DNA of 64,000 nt from Streptomyces sp. NBC_01314. GTDB taxonomy: Bacteria > Actinomycetota > Actinomycetes > Streptomycetales > Streptomycetaceae. Where the stretch lies: assembly GCF_041435215.1 (NCBI RefSeq), contig NZ_CP108394.1, forward strand, positions 8,122,001-8,186,000, in the 5' to 3' direction. This document shows, one piece after another, positions 5,612-35,496 of this stretch. Made by a program: the position numbers and the translations under genes. The notes below the pieces were generated by a model that worked only from the letters and a program-made list of their open reading frames with translations, was not told the origin of the DNA and ran no database searches. Position 1 is the stretch's first letter. The number at the start of each line of letters is the position of its first letter.

Positions 5612-7060
5612 ATGAGACGACTTGTCAGACGGGTCATGGTGGCCGCCGCGGTGGCGCTCTCCGTGCTCACCGGCGTCACCACCCCCGCCCAGGCCGCCGC
5701 GCCCGCGTCCCCCGCCGTCACCTTCACCAACCCGATAGCCGAGCAGCGGGCCGACCCGCACATCTTCAAGCACACCGACGGCTACTACTACTTCACGGCC
5801 ACCGTCCCGGCGTACGACAAGATCGTGATGCGGCGGGCCACCACCCTCCAGGGTCTCGCCACGGCGACGGAGACCACCATCTGGACCAAGCACGCCAGTG
5901 GTGAGATGGGTGCCCACATCTGGGCACCGGAGATCCACTTCATCGACGGCAAGTGGTACATCTACTTCACGGCCGGCTCCTCCAACGACATCTGGAAGAT
6001 CCGCCCGTACGTCCTGGAGACCAGTTCCGCCAACCCGATCACCGGCACCTGGACCGAGAAGGGCCGCATCTCCCTGCCGCTCGACACCTTCTCGCTCGAC
6101 GCGACGACCTTCACCGTCGGCAGCACCCGCTATCTGAGCTGGGCGCAGAACGACCCGGCGGTCGGCGACGGCACCAACATCTACCTGGCGACGATGTCCA
6201 ACCCCTGGACGATCAGCGGCAGTCCGGTCATGATCTCCCGGCCCACCAACGCCTGGGAGAAGGTCGGCCACACCGTCAACGAGGGCCCGGCGGTCATCCA
6301 GCGCAACGGCAAGGTCTTCATGACCTTCTCGGCCGCCGCCACCGACGCCAACTACTGCCTCGGCCTGCTGACCGCCTCCGCCTCCGCGGACCTGATGAAC
6401 GCGGCCTCCTGGGTGAAGACCCCGAACCCGGTCTTCACCAGCAACGCCGCGACCGGCCAGTACGGCCCCGGCCACAACACCTTCACCACGTCCGAGGACG
6501 GAAAGTCCGACATCCTCGTCTACCACGACCGCAACTACAAGGACATCAGCGGCGACCCGCTCAACGACCCCAACCGCCGCACCCGCTACCAGAAGCTGTA
6601 CTGGAACGCCGACGGCACGCCCAACTTCGGCATCCCCGTCGCCGACGGCGCGACCCCGGTCCGCCTCTCCTCGTACAACTTCCCGGACAGGTTCATCCGG
6701 CACTGGGAGTACCGCGCGAAGCTGGAGGCCAACGTCACCAACCTCGCCGACTCGCAGTTCCGGATCGTGACCGGGCTCACGGGCAGCGGCACGGTCTCGC
6801 TGGAGTCGGCGAACTTCCCCGGCTACTACCTCCGCCACAAGAACAACGAGGTGTGGGTGGAGAAGGACGACGGCACGGCCCTGTTCGACGCCGACGCCTC
6901 GTTCTACCAGCGGGCCGGTCTCGCCGACACCGCGGCCGGGGTCTCGTACGAGTCGTACAACTTCCCCGGCCGCTACATCCGGCACTTCAACAACCTGCTC
7001 TACACCCAGCCCGTCAGCACGACCCTCGACCGGCAGGACGCGACCTTCTACAAGGAGTAG
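5612..7060 (+). CDS. Secreted GH43 exo-alpha-L-arabinofuranosidase with CBM42 (AbfB) domain
   Basis: 482 residues from ATG 5612, preceded by CGAAGGG. A Sec signal peptide (MRRLVRRVMVAAAVALSVLT, cleavage after AQA) leads into the GH43 propeller: catalytic base Asp in EQRADPHIF, HIWAPEIHFIDGKWYIYFTAG, SLDATTFTV, and the acid Glu in VNEGPAVIQRNG. From about residue 345 three AbfB/CBM42 trefoil repeats follow (SYNFPDRFIRH, SANFPGYYLRH, SYNFPGRYIRH), which bind arabinofuranosyl side chains. The architecture matches what I recall of the S. avermitilis exo-1,5-alpha-L-arabinofuranosidase Araf43A. With the preceding GH43 and GH78 genes it suggests pectin/arabinan side-chain degradation outside the cell. 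Confidence 0.92.
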   Translation: MRRLVRRVMVAAAVALSVLTGVTTPAQAAAPASPAVTFTNPIAEQRADPHIFKHTDGYYYFTATVPAYDKIVMRRATTLQGLATATETTIWTKHASGEMGAHIWAPEIHFIDGKWYIYFTAGSSNDIWKIRPYVLETSSANPITGTWTEKGRISLPLDTFSLDATTFTVGSTRYLSWAQNDPAVGDGTNIYLATMSNPWTISGSPVMISRPTNAWEKVGHTVNEGPAVIQRNGKVFMTFSAAATDANYCLGLLTASASADLMNAASWVKTPNPVFTSNAATGQYGPGHNTFTTSEDGKSDILVYHDRNYKDISGDPLNDPNRRTRYQKLYWNADGTPNFGIPVADGATPVRLSSYNFPDRFIRHWEYRAKLEANVTNLADSQFRIVTGLTGSGTVSLESANFPGYYLRHKNNEVWVEKDDGTALFDADASFYQRAGLADTAAGVSYESYNFPGRYIRHFNNLLYTQPVSTTLDRQDATFYKE

Positions 7061-7835: not shown

Positions 7836-9092
7836 CTACTTCCGCTGGTCAGGGGTCGGTGCCGCGTCCGGTTCGGGGGCGCGGGGACGGGGGCGCAGCG
7901 GGAGGTCGGTGGTGACCTCGAAGCCGCCTTCGGGACGCTGACCGGCCTTCAGGGAGCCGCCCACGGACTGGGCGCGCTCGCGCATGCCGATGAGGCCGAA
8001 GCCGCGGCGGTCGCCGAGCGTGCTGTGGGGGCTTGCCGAGCCGTCGTCGGTGACCCTGATCGTCAGATGGGCCTCCTCGTACGTGAGGCGGATGCGTGCC
8101 GCGTCCACGGCGGCGTGCTTGCTGACGTTGGTGAGGGCTTCCTGCACGATCCGGTACGCGGTCAGGTCCACGCCGGGGTCGAGCAGACCGGGGGCGCCCT
8201 CCGTGGTGACCATGACCGAGAGGCCGGCGGAATCGCACGCGGCCATCAGGTCCGGGAGCTGACCCAGTCCGGGGGTGGGGGTGAGTGGCGCCTCGGGGTC
8301 GTCGGGGCGGCGCAGCACACCGACGGTGGACTTCAGCTCGCGCAGCGCCGCCGACGTGGTGGAGGTCAGGTCGGTGAGGATCCGGTGGGCCTGCTCGGGG
8401 TCGGTGCGGGTGAGGTGCGCGGCGGTGCCCGCCTGGGCGTTGGCGAGGGCCAGGTGGTGGGCGACCACGTCGTGCAGATCGCGGGCGATGCGCATCCGCT
8501 CCTCGGTGACCCTCAGGCGGGCCTCCTCCTCCCGGGTGCGCTCGGCGTGCTCGGCGCGGGCCTGCACCGACTTCAGATAGGCCCGCCGGATCTGGGTCGC
8601 CCGGCCCGTGGCGAGGGGCAGCAGCAGCCAGAAGGCGGGGCCGATCGTCCTGAGCACCAGTGACAGGTGGGTCATGGAGTCGGAGAGCACGGCCGCGAGT
8701 GTCATCGTCGCGATGGTGGTGAGGCCGTAGACGCGGGTGGTCCCCCGGTCGGTGAGCGTGGCCAGCCAGTAGAGGGCGGCCATGATCGGCGCCAGCAGCA
8801 GCGGGGTGAGCAGATAGCCCATCGAGATCGCGCCCCCGGTGCCGACCACGGTCACGACGAGGGCGGTGCGCGGGTGGGTGCGGCGCTTGAGCAGGGCGAG
8901 ACAGGACGCTCCCATGAAGGCGACGCCGATTTTGCCCTCGGCCGGCGGTGCGGCGCCGGGCAGGGTGAGCGCCATGCCGAGGACCGCACAGCCCATCAGC
9001 GCCATGGCCATCGTCAGGTCAACGAGGAACGGATGGCGTTCCGAGAATTCCTCGAGGCGATCGGCGTAGCGCCGTTCCAGGCTGACGGTCAT
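7836..9092 (-). CDS. Sensor histidine kinase, HisKA_3 type
   Basis: 418 residues from ATG 9092, which has GGAG 6 bp upstream; an in-frame ATG at 9158 would add a His-rich leader partly encoded by a 12-bp tandem repeat (9138-9161). Four to five hydrophobic segments (30-160) form a membrane sensor without an obvious extracellular domain. The HisKA_3 dimerisation helix has the phosphorylatable His in RIARDLHDVVAHH, and the HATPase_c domain ends with GFGLIGMRERAQSVGG. It phosphorylates the response regulator encoded directly downstream. The short loops suggest it senses membrane-borne or transporter-linked signals, which is inference. Confidence 0.92.
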   Translation of the reverse strand: MTVSLERRYADRLEEFSERHPFLVDLTMAMALMGCAVLGMALTLPGAAPPAEGKIGVAFMGASCLALLKRRTHPRTALVVTVVGTGGAISMGYLLTPLLLAPIMAALYWLATLTDRGTTRVYGLTTIATMTLAAVLSDSMTHLSLVLRTIGPAFWLLLPLATGRATQIRRAYLKSVQARAEHAERTREEEARLRVTEERMRIARDLHDVVAHHLALANAQAGTAAHLTRTDPEQAHRILTDLTSTTSAALRELKSTVGVLRRPDDPEAPLTPTPGLGQLPDLMAACDSAGLSVMVTTEGAPGLLDPGVDLTAYRIVQEALTNVSKHAAVDAARIRLTYEEAHLTIRVTDDGSASPHSTLGDRRGFGLIGMRERAQSVGGSLKAGQRPEGGFEVTTDLPLRPRPRAPEPDAAPTPDQRK

Positions 9093-9187
9093 CGGTGACT
9101 CCGGTCGGTGGGGCTGGTGACCACGGTGGTCGTCATGGGTCGACATGGTGGTCGACATGGTGGTCGATTTCGGGTGGGAACGCCCCG

Positions 9188-9221
9188 GGGGCCGTCCGTG
9201 TCCTTGGCCACGGACGGCCCC
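9188..9221 (-). terminator. Terminator after the MMPL gene
   Basis: Perfect 13-bp stem (9188-9200 with 9209-9221), loop TCCTTGGC, just past the MMPL stop at 9238 and before the kinase gene on the same strand. It suggests separate transcription of the exporter and the two-component system. Confidence 0.75.
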
Positions 9222-9237
9222 GGTGGGGGCGGTCGGA

Positions 9238-11469
9238 TCAGGTGCGTGTCACTTCCAGTTCGGCCGGGGCGGCCGATGCCGGGTCCGTCTCGGCCGGGGC
9301 CGGCTCCGCGTCGGCGCGGCGGGTGAGCGCCTCGCCCTCCACGTCGACGTGGGGAAGTATCCGGTCCAGCCACTTCGGCAGCCACCAGGCCTTGTCGCCG
9401 AGCAGGGCGAGCACGGCCGGCACGATCGCCATGCGGACGACGAACGCGTCGAACAGGACCGCCGAGGCCAGCCCGAACCCGATCATCTTGATCATGGAGT
9501 CGCTCTCGCCGATGAACCCGGCGAACACCGCGATCATGATCAGGGCGGCGGCCACGACCACGCGGGCACTGTGCCGGAAGCCGCTGGTGATCGCCTCGTC
9601 GGCCCGGTCGCCATGGACGTACGCCTCCCGCATCCGGGAGACGAGGAACACCTCGTAGTCCATGGCCAGGCCGAAGACGATACCCACCAGGAAGATCGGC
9701 ATCAGGCTCATGATCGGGCCGGTCTGGTCCACGCCCAGGATCTCCGCGCCGTGGCCCTGCTGGAAGACCAGGACGACCACGCCGAGCGACGCGAGCACCG
9801 ACAGCAGGAACCCGACGGCGGCCTTGAGCGGGACGAGCAGGGAGCGGAAGACGACCATCAGGAGGATGACGGCCAGGCCCACCACGACCAGCAGATACGG
9901 AACCAGCGCGGACTGCACCTTGCCGGAGATGTCGATGTTCAGCGCGGTGGTGCCGGTGACCACGTACGTCGCCCCGGTCCCGGACTCGATGCCGGGACGC
10001 TCGTCCCGGATGGTGGTCACCAGGTCCTTGGTCTTCTGGTCGGTCGGCGCGGTGGCGGGCACCGCCGCGAAGACGGCGGTGTCGCCGGCCTCGTTGAAGT
10101 TCGCGGGGGAGACGGACACGATCCCCTTGGTGGCGCCGATCTCCTTCGCGACGGTCTGCGCGGCGCTCTTCGCGTCGGCGGCGCCCTTGGCGTCCACCAC
10201 GATCGTCAGCGGCCCGTTGAAGCCGGGCCCGAAGCCCTCGGCGAGCGCGTCGTAGGCCCGGCGCTCGGTGGTGGAGGTCTGCTTGGCCTCGTCGCCGGGC
10301 ATGCCCAGCTGGAGGTCGGTCATCGGCACCGCGAGCGCGCCGAGAGCGATGACACCGAGGATCAGTACGGGCACGGGGCGGCGCAGCACGAACCGCGACC
10401 AGCGGGTGCCCCCGTTGGTCCCGGGGCTCTCCTCGATCCGGCCGCTCCCGCGCGCCTTGCGCCCCAGAACGGCGTTCGGCCAGCAGCCGAGGAGGGCCGG
10501 GACCAGGGTCAGCGCGATCAGTACGGCGACGACGACCGCGCCCGCGGCGGCCAGCCCCATCTTCGTCAGCATCGGGATGCCGACCACGGACAGTCCGGCC
10601 AGCGCGATGACGACGGTGAGCCCGGCGAACACGACCGCCGACCCGGCCGTGCCCGTGGCGAGGGCGGTCGCCTCCTCGGGCGTACGGCCGTTGGCGCGTT
10701 CCTCGCGGTAGCGGGACACGACGAACAGGGCGTAGTCGATGCCGACCGCGAGGCCCAGCATCATCGCCAGGGTGCCGGTCGTGGTGGACAGGCCGAAGGC
10801 GTCGGACAGGGCGAGGATGGCGGCCATGCTGACGCCGACGCCGATGAGGGCGGTCAGCAGCGGCAGCCCGGCCGCGGCCAACGAGCCGAAGGTGACCAGC
10901 AGCACGACGGCGGCGAGGGCGACACCGATCACCTCGGCCGTCCCGCCCGGGCCGGAGCGTCCGACCACCGCGTTGCCGCCCGCCTCGACGGTCAGCCCGG
11001 AGTCCCGGGCCTTGTCGATGGCCTGCTCCAGCTGGGTCTTGGCGGCGTCGGAGAGGTCGCTGGCGGTGACCTCGTAGGTGACGGTCGCGTACGCCGTCGT
11101 ACCGTCCTTGCTGACCGCCCGCGCCTGGAACGGGTCGACGGCGTTCGCGACCTGCGAGCCGTCGGCCAGATCGGCCACGGTGTCCTCGACGGCCTTCCTG
11201 TTCTCGGCGGCGGTGACCTTCTCACCGCTCGGCGCGACGAACACGACCCGGGCGGTGGCGCCGTCGGCCGTGACCCCGGGAAAGCGCTGTTCCAGCAGGT
11301 CGAACGCCTTCTGGGACTCGATGCCCGGCATCGAGAACTCCTCGTCGGAGGCTCCCGGGGCCTTGAGGGCGCCGATACCGACGGCGCCCAGTACCGCCAC
11401 CCACATCAGGATGACGTACCAGCGTTTGCGGAAGGCCAGCCGGCCCAGCCGATGAAGGAAGGTTGCCAT
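9238..11469 (-). CDS. MMPL-family (RND superfamily) membrane transporter
   Basis: 743 residues, typical MMPL length. Two repeats, each with one transmembrane helix, a large extracytoplasmic loop (about 35-180 and 385-520) and five more helices. The proton-relay region of the first half contains GLAVGIDYALFVVSRYREE and the second half GIVFGLAMDYEVFLVSRMREA, both standard for the family. Members export lipids, siderophore-like molecules or drugs using the proton gradient; the substrate is not deducible. GGAGA precedes the ATG. The neighbouring two-component system may control it. Confidence 0.93.
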   Translation of the reverse strand: MATFLHRLGRLAFRKRWYVILMWVAVLGAVGIGALKAPGASDEEFSMPGIESQKAFDLLEQRFPGVTADGATARVVFVAPSGEKVTAAENRKAVEDTVADLADGSQVANAVDPFQARAVSKDGTTAYATVTYEVTASDLSDAAKTQLEQAIDKARDSGLTVEAGGNAVVGRSGPGGTAEVIGVALAAVVLLVTFGSLAAAGLPLLTALIGVGVSMAAILALSDAFGLSTTTGTLAMMLGLAVGIDYALFVVSRYREERANGRTPEEATALATGTAGSAVVFAGLTVVIALAGLSVVGIPMLTKMGLAAAGAVVVAVLIALTLVPALLGCWPNAVLGRKARGSGRIEESPGTNGGTRWSRFVLRRPVPVLILGVIALGALAVPMTDLQLGMPGDEAKQTSTTERRAYDALAEGFGPGFNGPLTIVVDAKGAADAKSAAQTVAKEIGATKGIVSVSPANFNEAGDTAVFAAVPATAPTDQKTKDLVTTIRDERPGIESGTGATYVVTGTTALNIDISGKVQSALVPYLLVVVGLAVILLMVVFRSLLVPLKAAVGFLLSVLASLGVVVLVFQQGHGAEILGVDQTGPIMSLMPIFLVGIVFGLAMDYEVFLVSRMREAYVHGDRADEAITSGFRHSARVVVAAALIMIAVFAGFIGESDSMIKMIGFGLASAVLFDAFVVRMAIVPAVLALLGDKAWWLPKWLDRILPHVDVEGEALTRRADAEPAPAETDPASAAPAELEVTRT

Positions 11470-30178: not shown

Positions 30179-31468
30179 CTACGCCTCCTTCGAGAACAGC
30201 GCCCGGCCCCACCAGTCGTCCGCGTCCCGGACACCCGGCGGCACCGCGAAGACCGCCGAACCGACGTGCTGGATGTACTCGTTGAGCGCGTCCGTGGCCA
30301 GATTGCGCTGGACCGGGATGAACCCCGTCCGCACATCGCGCTGGTAGGCGAGGAAGAACAGGCCCGCGTCCAGGCGGCCGAGCCCGTCCGTGCCGTCGGT
30401 GAAGGAGTAGCCGCGGCGCAGGAGCGTCGCCCCGTCGTTGGAGTCGGGGTGAGCGAGCCGTACGTGCGCGTCCGGCAGCATCGCCTTCAGGAACGGCTTG
30501 TCGCGTTCCTTCGCCTTGCCCACCGGGGCGCCCTCGCCCTTGTCACGGCCGAAGATGTCCTCCTGCTCCTGCAGCGAGGTCCGGTCCCAGGGCTCGATGT
30601 GCATCCGGATGCGGCGGGCGACGAGGTACGAGCCGCCGGTCATCCAGGCCGAGTTGTCGTCGACGTCCCTCTCGCCCACCCACACGAACTTCTTCAGCCG
30701 GGCCGTCTCCGTGCCCGCGATGTTGCGGGTGCCGTCCTTGAACCCCATGAGGTTGCGCGGGGTCTGCGCCTCGGGCGTGGTCGACGAGGTCTTGCCGAAC
30801 CCGAGCTGGGACCAGCGGACCGACACCTTGCCGAAGCCGATGCGGGCGAGGTTGCGGATGGCGTGCACCGCGACCTGCGGGTCGTCCGCGCAGGCCTGGA
30901 CGCACAGGTCACCGCCGCTGCGGGCCCGGTCCAGGTTGTCACCGGCGAACTGCGGCAGGTCCACCAGCGCCTCGGGCCGCTGCCCCGCCAGCCCGAACCT
31001 GTCGAACAGCGACGGCCCGAAGCCGATCGTCAGTGTCAGCCGGGACGGCTTCAGCCCCAGGGCCTCGCCGGTGTCGTCCGGCGGGGCCTCCGCCAGACCG
31101 CCGTACGCGCCGTCGCCGACCGCCTTCCCGGCGGTCATCCGGCGCGCGGCGGCCGTCCAGTCCTTCAGCATGGCCACGAACTCGGCACGGTCGTCCGTCT
31201 CCACGTCGAACGCCGCGAAGTGCAGCCGGTCCTGCACGGGCGTGGCGATACCGGCCTGGTGGGCGCCGTGGAAGGCGACGCCCGCCCCGGCGCTGGGAGC
31301 CGTGTCGTCGCCGGTGCGCGCCACGGCGACCGCGCCGCCGGCCGCGGCGGCACCGAGCGCGAGCCCGGCACCACCCCAGCCGATCAGCGCACGCCGCGAC
31401 GGAGTACGGGAGTTCTCCGACGCAGTACGGGGGCCGGGCTCGGGGGAGTCGTCGGTGGTCATCGTCAC
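30179..31468 (-). CDS. efeB: EfeB: Tat-exported DyP-type heme peroxidase
   Basis: 429 residues from GTG 31468, which forms a GTGA overlap with the efeO stop (ATG 31462 is possible). Tat signal SRRALIGWGGAGLALGAAA. DyP hallmarks: GFKDGTRNI (distal GXXDG with catalytic Asp) and proximal His in RIRMHIEPWDRTSLQ; terminal region ALNEYIQHVGSAVFAVPPGV. I recall the S. coelicolor/lividans counterpart as DtpA, linked to aerial development. Acts outside the membrane, oxidising substrates with H2O2 and supplying iron to EfeU with EfeO. Confidence 0.94.
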   Translation of the reverse strand: MTMTTDDSPEPGPRTASENSRTPSRRALIGWGGAGLALGAAAAGGAVAVARTGDDTAPSAGAGVAFHGAHQAGIATPVQDRLHFAAFDVETDDRAEFVAMLKDWTAAARRMTAGKAVGDGAYGGLAEAPPDDTGEALGLKPSRLTLTIGFGPSLFDRFGLAGQRPEALVDLPQFAGDNLDRARSGGDLCVQACADDPQVAVHAIRNLARIGFGKVSVRWSQLGFGKTSSTTPEAQTPRNLMGFKDGTRNIAGTETARLKKFVWVGERDVDDNSAWMTGGSYLVARRIRMHIEPWDRTSLQEQEDIFGRDKGEGAPVGKAKERDKPFLKAMLPDAHVRLAHPDSNDGATLLRRGYSFTDGTDGLGRLDAGLFFLAYQRDVRTGFIPVQRNLATDALNEYIQHVGSAVFAVPPGVRDADDWWGRALFSKEA

Positions 31469-32616
31469 TTCACCACGGCTGCCGCGAGCTGCGAGAGGGG
31501 CTCGGCGAGCGCGTTCACCGCGTCCGACAGCTCCTTCTGCTCCGCCTTGCCGACCTTGTCGTAGGAGACGAAGTCGTAACCCGTCTTGTCCTTGCGGTAC
31601 TTGTCGAGCAGCGTGTTCAGGGCCGCGAACTGCTGGTCGAGTTCCTTCGTCAGCTCCGGGTCGTTCTCGGCGGCGACGGACTTCAGCAACTCGTACGACT
31701 CCTCGGCGCCCTCGACGTTCGCCTTGAAGTCGACCAGGTCGGTGTGCGAGTAGCGCTCCTCCTCGCCGGTGACCTTGCCGGTGGCGACCTCGTCGAGAAG
31801 TTCCTTGGCGCCGTTGGCCATGGAGGTCGGGGTGATCTCGGCCTTGCCGACCCGCTTCTGCCAGTCCTCCAGGTCGGTCACCAGCTGGTCGGCCAGCTCG
31901 GAGTCACGGTCGGTGAGCTTGCCGTCCTGCCAGAGCGAACGCTCCAGGCGATGCCAGCCCGTCCAGTCCTTCTCCAGGTCCTGCCCCTCCTCCAGACCGT
32001 CCTCGCGCAGGTCGACCTTCGGGTCGATGTCACCGAAGGACTCGGCGACCGGCTCGGTCCGCTCCCAGCCGATACGGGAGGGCGCGTACGCCTTCTTCGC
32101 GGCCTCGACGTCCCCGTCCTTGACGGCCTCGGCGAACACCTTCACCAGCGGGAGGGTCTCGTCGGCCTGGCCCTGCACGTACTTGCGGTACGAGGCGACG
32201 GCCGCGTCGAGCCGGGGGTCCCTCTTGGCGACCTTGCCGCCGCCGGTGGCCTTGACGTCCTGCCGGATGCCGTCGCCCTTCATGCCCGGCTTGCAGGCGA
32301 TCCGGTAGTCGCCCGCCTTCACCTCGGCGGTGACCTTCTGCTTGGTGCCGGGCCCGATGTTCTCGCGCTCGGTGACCACGCGGTCGTCCGGGAAGAGAAG
32401 GTAGACCTCGGTGACCTTGGAGCCCTTGTTCTCGATGTCCAGCTCGACGTGGCCCGCCGGGAACTCCTTCTTCGACACCTCGCACTTGGTGTCGGTCGCG
32501 GTCACCGATATGGCCCCGTCCGCGCCCGCGCTGCTCTTCTCGGTGCAGCCGGTGACAGCGGTCAGGGCTGCCACCGTCGCGGCGGCGGTGACGGCGGAGA
32601 GTCTGAGGGGGCGCAT
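31465..32616 (-). CDS. efeO: EfeO: iron-uptake lipoprotein (cupredoxin + M75/imelysin domains)
   Basis: 383 residues from ATG 32616. Lipobox TAVTGC gives a lipoprotein. The cupredoxin-like domain (about 35-130) contains ISVTATDTKCEVSKKEFPAG and YRIACKPGM; the M75/imelysin domain follows with the family HxxE in WTGWHRLERSLWQDG. Binds ferric/ferrous iron at the cell surface and delivers it to EfeU. First gene of efeO-efeB-efeU-lipoprotein. A clear iron box lies 56 bp upstream of the start. Confidence 0.93.
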   Translation of the reverse strand: MRPLRLSAVTAAATVAALTAVTGCTEKSSAGADGAISVTATDTKCEVSKKEFPAGHVELDIENKGSKVTEVYLLFPDDRVVTERENIGPGTKQKVTAEVKAGDYRIACKPGMKGDGIRQDVKATGGGKVAKRDPRLDAAVASYRKYVQGQADETLPLVKVFAEAVKDGDVEAAKKAYAPSRIGWERTEPVAESFGDIDPKVDLREDGLEEGQDLEKDWTGWHRLERSLWQDGKLTDRDSELADQLVTDLEDWQKRVGKAEITPTSMANGAKELLDEVATGKVTGEEERYSHTDLVDFKANVEGAEESYELLKSVAAENDPELTKELDQQFAALNTLLDKYRKDKTGYDFVSYDKVGKAEQKELSDAVNALAEPLSQLAAAVVK

Positions 32617-32690: not shown

Positions 32691-32840
32691 CCAAATGCTG
32701 TACCCCCAGTGAAACCCTCTCTCCGGAGCCGTGCGAGCACGGCCCGATCACGGTGGCCAAAAACAGCCCCCATGATCCGGTCAAGAGCGGGTCAAGAGAC
32801 CCATTCGGCGGTCAAGAACGCGGTTTCACGTCGAAGCGTC

Positions 32841-33000
32841 AACTTCTGTGGCCTTCCGAGGCCTTCCGAGACTTTCCGGAACGTTCAGGGACGTTCCTAG
32901 ATGTTCCTGGACTTTCTTTGATGTTTGGGGATCTTCCTGGATCATCAGTGATCTTTAGGGGTCTTGCGCAACCTCACGGGATCTTCCGTGGGCCTTCGTG
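32841..33000. repeat. Degenerate 10-bp tandem array, about 16 units
   Basis: The DNA reads in a strict 10-bp period with consensus AYCTTCCKGG; examples are GCCTTCCGAG (twice), ATGTTCCTGG, ATCTTCCTGG, ATCTTTAGGG. TT at positions 4-5 is nearly constant. It ends 2 bp before the stop of the hmu pseudogene and starts about 150 bp from the efe iron box. No coding potential was seen. Confidence 0.85.
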
Positions 33001-33001
33001 A

Positions 33002-33841
33002 TCAAGAATCCCGTTTCGGCATGATCAGGACATCGCCGGTCCGCGGCTGCGGGAACACCTCGACCGGCTGCCGGTACACCTCCGACAGCAACTCCTCCTC
33101 GAAGACCCCGCCCGGCGGCCCGTCCGCCGCGATGCGCCCGTCCCGCAGTACGGCCACCCGGTCCGCGTACGCCGCCGCCAGCCCCAGGTCGTGCAGCACG
33201 ACGACCATCGCGTCCCCGGCCCGAGCCCGCGCCCGGCACACCCGCAGCACCAGTTCCTGGTGCCGCAGGTCCAGCGCGGCCGTCGGCTCGTCCAGCATCA
33301 GCAGCGGCGCCCGCTGGGCGAGCACCCGCGCCGGCGCCACCCGGGCGCGCTCGCCGCCGCTCAGCGCGGAGAAGGTCCGCGCCGCGAACCCGGTGACCTC
33401 CGTGACCGCCATCGCCTCCGCCACGGCTCTGTCGTCGGGGTCTTCTCACTCGTCCGCGTGCGGCTGCGGCGCCCACGGCGCCCGCCCCATTTGCGCCCCC
33501 GCGCACCCGAGCGACGCCCCGATCGGCAACGCCAGCACGATCCTCGGGAACCGCACGTTCCACAACACCGACTCGGGAACGCGTTCGAGCTCCGCCCCGC
33601 CGAGCCCGATCCGGTGGACGACCGAGGAGATCACGTCACCGGTGGGGATCGGATAGGCCCCGAGTCCACCGGCGACGGGAACCAGGATGAGGAGGGCGAC
33701 GACGAGACCGACGGTGAGGAGGAGGGGAGCGTGACGACGGGCGGAGGCGGAGGCCTGTGCCCCACCGGCCGCGGCCGACTCGCCCGCCTCCGCGGGCCTG
33801 TCGGACCACTCCGGCTCAACCGGCTTGTCCAGTACGGTCAC
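33002..33841 (-). pseudogene. hmuU'-'hmuV deletion chimera: broken heme ABC importer
   Basis: From GTG 33841 (AGAGGA upstream) the frame encodes the start of a FecCD-type heme permease: cytoplasmic head, helix 1 LLLTVGLVVALLILVPVAGG, and RFPRIVLALPIGASLGCAGA (residues about 97-116). There it switches without frameshift to the middle of a heme ATPase: QMGRAPWAPQPHADE, stop TGA (33446-33448), then in the same frame RAVAEAMAVTEVTG, ABC signature ALSGGERARV, Walker B LLMLDEPTAALD and VVLHDLG. Walker A and most permease helices are missing. About 1 kb was lost. hmuT is absent upstream. Heme import by this locus must be dead. Confidence 0.88.
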
Positions 33842-33963
33842 TTGATCCTCTCAAGGTTGGTCTCGGGGCTGGTCCCAGGGCTGGGGTCGGCCCTGCCTGA
33901 TCGCTGACCGGCGGTGCGGTGACCTGGTACGACCCGGGGCCCGGTTGATGTTTCAATGCTGGG

Positions 33964-34608
33964 GTGACCGACTTCGATGTGCTGCGGGTGTTCTGCGGAC
34001 CCCGCGGCGGATACGGCAACGAACTGGGCGTCGTCCGCGAGGGCTCCGTGATGCCCGACCGTGCCGAGCGCCAGGAGTTCGCCGCCAAACTCGGCTTCAG
34101 CGAGACCGTGTTCGTGGACGACCCCGAGCGCGGTGTCATCGACATCTACACCCCGTCGCTGCGCCTGCCCTTCGCCGGATACCCGTGCGTGGGCGCGGCC
34201 TGGCTGCTCGACGTTCCCGAACTCGTCACCCCGGCCGGTGTCGTCGGGGCCCGGCTGGACGGGGAGTTCAGCTGGATCGAAGCCCTGCCGGAGTGGGCCC
34301 CGCCCCGCACGTTCCGCCAGTACGCCTCCGCCGCCGAGGTCGACGACCTGCGCGTCCCGCCGCCCGGCGACTGGATCTACGCCTGGGCCTGGGAGGACGA
34401 GGCCGCCGGCCGTGTCCGCGCCCGCGCCTTCCCCGGCCGCGACGACGGTATCGACGAGGACGAGGCCACGGGCGCGGCGGCGCTGCAGTTGACCGCCCAG
34501 TTGGGCCGAGCCCTGAACATCACCCAGGGCACGGGCTCCCAAATCCTGACGGCGCCACAGCCGCATGGGTGGGTGGAGGTCGGGGGACGGGTGTTCCTGG
34601 AGCGGTGA
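33964..34608 (+). CDS. PhzF-family isomerase-like protein
   Basis: 214 residues from GTG 33964, shorter than the usual 260-300. PhzF/diaminopimelate epimerase-like signatures: RVFCGPRGGYGNELGVV (position of the catalytic acid near GN-E), LRLPFAGYPCVGAAWLL and DEDEATGAAALQLTAQLGRAL. Members catalyse proton shifts in phenazine and other pathways; most family members are of unknown function. There is no phenazine cluster here, so that role is unlikely. Convergent with heme oxygenase across a spacer holding a dispersed repeat. Confidence 0.85.
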   Translation: MTDFDVLRVFCGPRGGYGNELGVVREGSVMPDRAERQEFAAKLGFSETVFVDDPERGVIDIYTPSLRLPFAGYPCVGAAWLLDVPELVTPAGVVGARLDGEFSWIEALPEWAPPRTFRQYASAAEVDDLRVPPPGDWIYAWAWEDEAAGRVRARAFPGRDDGIDEDEATGAAALQLTAQLGRALNITQGTGSQILTAPQPHGWVEVGGRVFLER

Positions 34609-34758: not shown

Positions 34759-35427
34759 TCACGCACTCAACGGAAACTCTTCCCCCAAAGCAATAAAGAC
34801 CGCCGTGTTCAGCGCGAACGCCCGCTTGCACTCACTCACGATCCGCTGCTTCTCCAGATCATCGGCCCGCACCCGGTCCAGCAGCTCCCGATAACCCCGC
34901 TTGAACGCGGCCGGGTTGGTGATCTCCTCGAAGACGTAGAACCGGACCCCGTCGCCCTTCCTGGCGAGGCCCCACGTCTTCTCGGCCCGGTCCCGGACGA
35001 TCTGCCCGCCGGAGAGGTCACCGAGGTACCGCGTGTAGTGGTGGGCCACATAACCGCCGGCCCAGGTGCGCGCGCACTCGGCGACCCGCGCCGCGTACGC
35101 CTCGGTCGCCGGCAGCGCCGTGAGCGTCGAGCGCCAGCCGAAACCGCGCAGATACTCCAGGTCCCGCTCCAGCTCGGAGAGCCGCATCAGCTCGGGCTGG
35201 ATGAACGGCCCGGCGACCGGGTCACCGGCCAGCCCCGGCGCGGCGCTCTCCAGCGCCTCGTACACGAACCACAGCTGCTCGGTGTACCGCGTGTACGCCT
35301 CGACGCCGAGTTTGCCGCCGAGCATGTCGTCCATGAACGTCGTGGACACCACCTCGGTGTGCTGCTCGTGCGAGGCGGCACGAATGAGCGTGGAGAACGC
35401 CGTGTCCGATGTGACCGACGCGTTCAT
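34759..35427 (-). CDS. Heme oxygenase (biliverdin-producing)
   Basis: 222 residues from ATG 35427 with GGAGG upstream. Heme oxygenase fold: proximal His in LIRAASHEQHTEVVSTTFMD, YTRYTEQLWFVYEALE, and the distal helix HYTRYLGDLSGGQIVRDRAE with the conserved Gly-kink and Asp. It opens heme to biliverdin, CO and iron. Its iron box shows DmdR control. It would have used heme brought in by the hmu transporter, now broken next door, so only endogenous heme or another importer can feed it. Confidence 0.94.
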   Translation of the reverse strand: MNASVTSDTAFSTLIRAASHEQHTEVVSTTFMDDMLGGKLGVEAYTRYTEQLWFVYEALESAAPGLAGDPVAGPFIQPELMRLSELERDLEYLRGFGWRSTLTALPATEAYAARVAECARTWAGGYVAHHYTRYLGDLSGGQIVRDRAEKTWGLARKGDGVRFYVFEEITNPAAFKRGYRELLDRVRADDLEKQRIVSECKRAFALNTAVFIALGEEFPLSA

Positions 35428-35477: not shown

Positions 35478-35496
35478 TATGGTTAGGCTTACCTAA
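35478..35496 (-). promoter_or_regulatory. Iron box of the heme oxygenase gene
   Basis: TATGGTTAGGCTTACCTAA matches 16 of 19 positions of the iron-box consensus; 51 bp upstream of the heme oxygenase start. Confidence 0.88.

What the first reader, a model, noticed from the sequence alone, without database searches (positions are those of the whole stretch)
33002..33841. In-frame deletion fused a heme permease to a heme ATPase, followed by a stop
Seen: the permease text RFPRIVLALPIGASLGCAGA switches, without frameshift, to ATPase text QMGRAPWAPQPHADE; then TGA (33446-33448), then ATPase text resumes in the same frame to the end. Walker A and most permease helices are missing, and no hmuT is upstream. 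Known: Streptomyces hmuTUV encodes a heme importer. Inference: one deletion of about 1 kb joined hmuU and hmuV, then a point mutation (perhaps GGA to TGA) closed the chimera. The ATG at the joint could be microhomology. The neighbouring heme oxygenase and its iron box look intact, so heme use survives without this importer.
Basis: partly seen in the sequence, partly recalled or inferred. Interest (0 to 1): 0.78.

Follow-up and report, generated by a model that had tools for sequence, protein, structure and literature searches.

The report
Wrecked half of split heme importer
A soil bacterium carries a fused, truncated leftover of the two membrane parts of a heme-import pump, and the pump's separate heme-catching parts, which its close relatives keep almost two million bases away, are gone too, so this looks like the dismantling of one two-piece machine.

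Summary
The fusion is real. On the minus strand, hmuU codons 1-116 join hmuV's 3' part in one frame, and a TGA follows 14 codons after the joint ATG. In three relatives with intact hmuU and hmuV the same two ATG codons lie 1172 bp apart, giving the deletion size. It is a pseudogene: no Walker A, most of the permease gone, and substitutions at five further conserved residues.

The missing hmuT is not part of this event. The window's clade runs a split system: hmuUV beside the heme oxygenase gene, and a divergent hmuT ('hmuT2') 1.9-2.0 Mb away in the two one-contig closest relatives, with an HtaA-domain protein and three probably secreted proteins, two weakly neocarzinostatin-like. In the window's genome that distal site is empty, so both halves are lost. 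Across 392 genus genomes hmuU and hmuT co-occur (172 both, 215 neither, 5 one only). Two genomes carry hmuT2, the surface genes, a heme oxygenase gene and hmuUV in one cluster.

The mutation itself is ordinary. The split importer with chromoprotein-like surface proteins is a new variant that I did not find in print. Heme binding by those proteins is untested.

The parts
33002..33841 (-). hmuU-hmuV fusion pseudogene (whole remnant)
33494..33841 (-). 5' part of hmuU, codons 1-116 (FecCD permease, PF01032, E 1.5e-7)
33488..33493 (-). joint: one hybrid codon and the ATG that is a codon in both parent genes; 1172 bp lie between the two ATGs in three relatives
33002..33490 (-). 3' part of hmuV from the joint ATG on (signature LSGGE and Walker B kept, Walker A lost; motif names recalled)
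33446..33448 (-). TGA stop inside the hmuV part, in a variable linker
33842..33963 (.). gap between hmuU start and phzF-like start; no iron-box-like site here (best 8 of 19 mismatches), unlike G312 and G286
33964..34608 (+). PhzF-like gene, kept neighbour
34759..35424 (-). heme oxygenase gene, intact (start inferred)
35478..35496 (.). iron-box-like site upstream of the heme oxygenase gene (3 mismatches to a recalled 19-mer)
31465..32616 (-). efeO-type gene (cupredoxin-like + imelysin domains), intact flank (start inferred)
30179..31468 (-). DyP-type peroxidase gene (efeB-type by recall), intact flank

Best explanation
The feature is a dead remnant. A 1172-bp deletion between two ATG codons, each in its own gene's frame, joined about the first 30% of hmuU to about the last 58% of hmuV; a stop codon and missense changes are also present. 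The ancestor did not use a local hmuTUV operon. It had a split heme importer: permease and ATPase (HmuUV) next to the heme oxygenase gene, and the heme-binding protein HmuT2 plus surface proteins (one HtaA-domain, three chromoprotein-like or Ig-like) at an unlinked, iron-box-bearing locus. In this genome both halves were lost; the distal site, between the paa genes and an asnC-type gene, is empty. Shown: the fusion, its size, both absences, the empty distal site, the intact split arrangement in relatives, the co-occurrence. Inferred: that HmuT2 feeds HmuUV, that the surface proteins catch heme, and that loss of need for external heme allowed the decay. The order of the losses and of deletion and stop is unknown.
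For: Joint and 1172-bp spacing in 3 of 3 close relatives. The remnant deviates at 7 of 129 positions conserved in at least 95% of 44-45 near-full-length copies, two of the seven being the hybrid joint codon counted in both genes; the three nearest relatives deviate at 1, 0 and 0. Tree of 59 genomes: G000 sits inside a clade whose other four members (G408, G286, G312, G306) all have hmuT2 (supports 1.0, 0.98, 0.93, 0.70). hmuT2 is in 28 of 392 genomes. I fetched the hmuUV locus of 27 of these 28: none shows a classical hmuT there (in G410 the contig ends before the place), and 24 have near-full-length hmuU and hmuV. U and T together: 172 both, 4 T only, 1 U only, 215 neither. 10 of 11 inferred hmuU losses share a branch with a hmuT loss. 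Two genomes hold Ig-NCS-HtaA-NCS | hmuT2-HO-hmuU-hmuV in one cluster. Distal site empty in G000. HmuT2's best PDB matches include named heme-binding proteins, and the His/Tyr/Arg heme residues of CgHmuT align with the same residues. Iron-box-like sites at 7 of 8 distal loci, none in 20 shuffles of one locus.
Against: In the hmuU part the window's branch shows no sign of relaxed change (1 unique nonsynonymous, 4 synonymous). A distant near-full-length copy, G289, deviates at 9 conserved positions, more than the remnant. G408 and G225 lost one partner only, G188 has a classical hmuT without hmuU and was not examined further, and G008 has hmuT2 without hmuU in a 740-contig assembly. Another ATPase of G000 scores 256.7 bits against the heme-ATPase cut-off of 261; G306 has its counterpart (257.3) besides its own intact hmuV, so I take it as a paralogue (150 of 288 candidates scored). 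The tree uses four neighbouring genes, the G306 sister placement has support 0.70, and the shuffle test ignores relatedness. No reads were available. Nothing biochemical was tested.
Confidence: 0.8

Rival explanations
1. Plain local decay: hmuUV was lost by chance, and the absence of the distal hmuT2 locus is unrelated (the two loci are not one system).
For: More than half of the genus sample has neither gene (215 of 392), so loss is common; G408 lost hmuU and kept hmuT2.
Against: Genome-wide co-occurrence with 5 exceptions in 392; 5 of 10 shared losses fall next to hmuT2-type sisters in which the two loci are on different contigs or megabases apart; one-cluster arrangement in two genomes.
Confidence: 0.12
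2. Assembly error: an intact hmuUV was collapsed or mis-joined.
For: Reads could not be inspected.
Against: The window lies in an 11.3-Mb contig of a 2-contig assembly rated 100% complete; no second hmuU at E<=1e-85 and no heme ATPase over the family cut-off; only 4 identical bases at the joint in the parents; independent missense changes and an empty partner locus fit real decay.
Confidence: 0.04
3. The 131-aa fusion product, or a read-through product, has a new function.
For: The frame is open across the joint and, apart from one TGA, to the end of hmuV.
Against: No Walker A, only FecCD profile positions 2-63 of 311, proline substitutions at residues otherwise conserved in 45 of 45 and 42 of 44 copies; no iron-box-like site upstream; in the DNA search of 392 genus genomes G000 alone, among the rows listed, covers the fusion end to end (the row list was cut).
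Confidence: 0.04

Closest known systems
hmuTUV-htaA-hmuO heme uptake of Corynebacterium and the homologous SCO2267/SCO2270-2274 locus of S. coelicolor (PMC12161575, passages read)
   Same: HmuU and HmuV orthologues, heme oxygenase next door, HtaA-domain surface proteins, iron-box regulation
   Different: In the window's clade the binding protein (HmuT2, 61-66% identical to the classical one) and the surface proteins are at a distant locus; in the window the transporter is a pseudogene
Solved heme importers 5b57/5b58 and 4g1u (BhuUV-T and HmuUV, names partly recalled)
   Same: HmuU of relative G312 matches them best (E 1.8e-72 and 7.2e-70)
   Different: The window copy keeps about 103 of 361 reference residues of the permease
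Neocarzinostatin/C-1027/macromomycin chromoproteins (PF00960)
   Same: The 269-aa distal protein gives a weak PF00960 match (E 5.4e-5, under the cut-off), and six of the eight best fold matches of its low-confidence model are such chromoproteins
   Different: Carries a C-terminal tail of sorting-signal type and sits beside hmuT2; I saw no enediyne genes but did not search for them; ligand unknown
S. atratus heme/iron cluster with two HtaA genes and a heme ABC transporter (PMC10060970, passages read)
   Same: Classical version of the window's locus
   Different: HtaA genes local; no split described in the passages read

Membership tests
HmuU (FecCD-type heme permease) | Full FecCD domain | tested here: not met
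   Only profile positions 2-63 of 311 in the window copy
HmuV (heme ABC ATPase, NF010068) | Score over curated cut-off of 261 bits | tested here: not met
   168 bits, profile 101-260, one TGA; relatives G312 and G306 score 314 and 309
hmuUV pseudogene | Homology to both intact genes plus disabling changes, with intact orthologues in relatives | tested here: met
HmuT (heme-binding protein) for distal HmuT2 | PF01497 domain and the His/Tyr/Arg heme residues of CgHmuT | tested here: met
   PF01497 E 4e-33; residues kept in the alignment to 5az3, taken as CgHmuT by recall and by a constant numbering offset of 23. Binding itself not tested
HtaA family for distal 353-aa protein | PF04213 over cut-off | tested here: met
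   44.8 bits, cut-off 24, G312 copy only
Neocarzinostatin family for distal 269-aa and 179-aa proteins | PF00960 over cut-off of 25 bits | tested here: inconclusive
   23.6 and 22.7 bits in G312; the database's precomputed column gives PF00960 for many, not all, of the 120 listed relatives
Heme import by the split system | Heme-dependent growth requiring both loci | not testable with these tools
   needs knockouts

The most novel reading that the evidence does not exclude
Some Streptomyces run a split heme importer in which chromoprotein-fold (neocarzinostatin-like), wall-anchored proteins and an HtaA protein hand heme to an unlinked HmuT2, which docks on HmuUV encoded megabases away. The chromoprotein fold, known for carrying enediynes, would here be a heme catcher, and the window records the system's two-locus collapse.
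Probability: 0.45. Interest if true: 0.7.

Novelty: new variant of a known kind. Interest (0 to 1): 0.5.

Why it matters
The fusion alone is a common kind of pseudogene. Following it shows that hmuU and hmuT stay or go together even when about 1.9 Mb or more apart, so two loci annotated separately are probably one machine. It also points to a group of probably secreted proteins, named by their sources as hypothetical, LPXTG or 'neocarzinostatin apoprotein domain' proteins, with a testable role in heme capture, and gives related strains with and without the system for testing why soil bacteria keep or drop heme import.

Tried and rejected
Rejected: that hmuT was removed by the same deletion (relatives lack it locally too); that another heme importer in G000 replaces this one (six full FecCD permeases exist, but no HmuT at E<=1e-15, and no heme ATPase over the cut-off, the best being 256.7 against 261 bits; I did not work out their substrates); that the joint is a strong microhomology event. 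The local state table was wrong for G059, whose operon lies about 25 kb away; one search used it, and one search replaces one search's loss count.

Led nowhere: PDB sequence search with the distal HtaA-domain protein (best E 0.045); literature searches for a split system or for neocarzinostatin-type heme proteins (no title or abstract start in the listings describes either; four of the seven listings were cut, to 15 of 654, and only open-licence PMC text is searched). PMC10881299 (passages) concerns heme uptake in Mesorhizobium and was not used. The structure model of the 269-aa protein is poor overall (mean pLDDT 59.6), so its fold matches are suggestive only; the two best are an entry titled for artificial repeat binders (4jw3). 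The iron-box consensus was typed from recall, and its shuffle control used simple base shuffles of one locus, 20 times.

Full report
What is there. The minus strand from 33841 to 33002 reads as one frame of 280 codons with a TGA at codon 132 and the normal stop at the end. The first 116 codons are hmuU (FecCD permease, PF01032), then one hybrid codon, then an ATG from which hmuV text runs on. Against the intact reference of G079 (Streptomyces sp. GQFP), the window keeps HmuU residues up to 103 of 361 and HmuV residues 116-274 of 274, so the Walker A part is gone while the signature motif and Walker B remain (motif names recalled).

The deletion. Three relatives, G312, G286 and G306, have intact hmuU and hmuV, 90-91% identical in the hmuV part. 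In all three the two ATG codons that meet at the joint are 1172 bp apart. This is not a multiple of three; the frame is kept because the ATG is a codon in both genes. The parents share 4 nt there (GATG), and 3.5% of random hmuU/hmuV joints share that much, so it is weak evidence for a microhomology mechanism; two bases at the joint match neither parent. The TGA lies in an acidic linker that varies in sequence and length; the four aligned relatives have sense codons or a gap there.

Decay. Of 129 positions conserved in at least 95% of 45 HmuU and 44 HmuV near-full-length copies, the remnant departs at 7, two of which are the hybrid joint codon counted in both genes; the other five include two leucine-to-proline changes. 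G312, G286 and G306 depart at 1, 0 and 0; a distant copy, G289, at 9. In a four-genome comparison of the hmuV part the window's branch has 7 unique nonsynonymous (one is the stop) and 7 synonymous codons, against 1/7, 2/1 and 2/11 in G312, G286 and G306; in the hmuU part it has 1/4, against 2/2, 5/10 and 2/4, with no sign of relaxation.

The locus across the genus. The classical order is efeO, hmuV, hmuU, hmuT, divergent htaA1 and htaA2, phzF-like, heme oxygenase, methionine aminopeptidase (the last name is recalled). Of 40 loci fetched round matching neighbours, 14 have hmuV, hmuU and hmuT, 1 has hmuU and hmuT without hmuV, 5 have hmuU and hmuV without hmuT, 4 have only hmuV traces or a broken hmuV, and 16 have none (loci were picked by similarity to the window, so this is no estimate of frequency; L069/G059 keeps its operon about 25 kb away).

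The missing hmuT. Relatives with hmuUV but no local hmuT carry another hmuT, 61-65% identical to the classical one, elsewhere (8 of 10 genomes tested; G000 and G150 have none at E<=1e-15). In the one-contig genomes G312 and G286 it is 1.9 and 2.0 Mb from hmuU. This hmuT2 type occurs in 28 of 392 genomes. I fetched the hmuUV locus of 27 of these 28 (not G008). None shows a classical hmuT there, though in G410 the contig ends before the place; 24 have near-full-length hmuU and hmuV; of the other three, G408 has a hmuV trace, and in G278 and G410 the contig ends. G022 and G180 keep local htaA genes. HmuT2 has PF01497 (E 4e-33). Its best solved relatives include entries named as hemin-binding proteins; the two top ones bear general names and are RhuT and C. 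glutamicum HmuT by recall. The His, Tyr and Arg that bind or stabilise heme in C. glutamicum HmuT (PMC4926363, passages read) align with the same residues in HmuT2.

The distal module. In 7 of 8 distal loci fetched, hmuT2 lies opposite homologues of a 269-aa protein, an HtaA-domain protein, a 179-aa protein and an 869-aa protein; G408 keeps hmuT2 and a piece of the last. Domains were tested on the G312 copies only: PF04213 for the HtaA protein, an I-set Ig domain in the 869-aa protein, and neocarzinostatin-family matches just under the cut-off for the 269- and 179-aa proteins. A 35-sequence model of the 269-aa protein has mean pLDDT 59.6; of its eight fold matches with E<=0.001, six are macromomycin, neocarzinostatin or C-1027. 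The 269-aa protein is found at E<1e-90 in 26 of 28 hmuT2 genomes and in 0 of 52 hand-picked others; four of the others (G005, G014, G079, G381) have weaker matches, E 2.5e-39 to 6.1e-43. Iron-box-like sites with 1-3 mismatches of 19 lie at 7 of 8 distal loci (not G408) and none in 20 shuffles of one locus.

Why the two loci are probably one system. First, L116 (Streptomyces sp. NBC_00620) and L183 (G325) carry the surface genes, hmuT2, a heme oxygenase gene, hmuU and hmuV side by side. Second, over 392 genomes hmuU (E<=1e-85) and hmuT of either type (E<=1e-70) give 172 both, 4 hmuT only (G008, G188, G408, G410), 1 hmuU only (G225), 215 neither. Of the exceptions, G410's contig ends inside hmuV and G225's locus is itself broken; G408 is a real remnant; G008 (740 contigs) and G188 were not examined. 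Leaving out genomes with a hmuT of other than hmuT2 type, 24 of 27 hmuT2 genomes have hmuU against 1 of 216 without any hmuT (Fisher p 8e-29, ignoring relatedness). Third, on a 59-genome tree (10 of 69 genomes dropped for missing markers), a loss-only count gives 11 hmuU losses and 11 hmuT losses, 10 on the same branch; 2000 label shuffles give a mean of 2.0 and at most 6. Five of the ten have hmuT2-type sisters. This test treats leaves as exchangeable.

The window's genome. G000 falls with G306, G312, G286 and G408, all hmuT2 genomes (supports). Its distal site, between the paa genes and the asnC-type gene, holds none of the module, only about 190 bp with two scraps of a neighbouring HAD-type gene. 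No HtaA1-type protein (E<=1e-10), HmuT (E<=1e-15), full hmuU (E<=1e-85) or heme ATPase over the cut-off was found elsewhere; one other ATPase scores 256.7 against the cut-off of 261, and G306 has its counterpart (257.3) besides an intact hmuV (150 of 288 candidates scored). The heme oxygenase gene and its iron-box-like site remain. G000 and G306 both lack the iron-box-like site upstream of hmuU that G312 and G286 have; if the two are sisters (support 0.70) it was probably lost before the fusion. The order of the distal deletion and the fusion is unknown.

Known or new. The classical locus is known in S. coelicolor (PMC12161575, passages) and S. atratus (PMC10060970, passages). PMC10924467 (passages) reports a Streptomyces HtaA-domain protein as a Tat-dependent tail-anchored protein. 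I found no description of a split heme importer with hmuT2 or of neocarzinostatin-type heme proteins in the listings, four of which were cut.

Verdict. Observation confirmed; interpretation partly supported. The fusion is an ordinary pseudogene; its context is a new variant of heme import that this genome has lost in both halves.

Noticed in passing
window 32828-32994: About 165 bp of repeat-rich DNA, poorer in GC than its surroundings, between the hmuV remnant and the efeO promoter, with no match in the alignments to G312 or G306.
   Followed up: partly
L138 about 5670-5840 (G306): hmuU and hmuV are intact but no iron-box-like site was found upstream, as in the window.
   Followed up: partly
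L137 (G286): No efeO match beside hmuV in the fetched stretch, unlike G312 and G306.
   Followed up: no
L157 and L139 (G408): A second, half-way case: hmuU gone, hmuV a fragment, distal module reduced to hmuT2 and an Ig-protein fragment.
   Followed up: partly
L140 (G150): hmuV nearly full length but hmuU, hmuT and htaA all without a match at the locus: another stage of decay.
   Followed up: no
L075 (G005) 8337-9391: hmuU match is split into two pieces, suggesting a frameshift.
   Followed up: no
P0002 residues 28-179: Sequence match (E 2.3e-7) to a chain of PDB entry 7qhm called 'Thiamine biosynthesis protein X'.
   Followed up: no
window 33964-34608: Short PhzF-like protein, kept beside the heme genes in loci with and without the importer (most loci were picked by it, so no frequency follows); it matches only about a quarter of the PhzF profile.
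   Followed up: no
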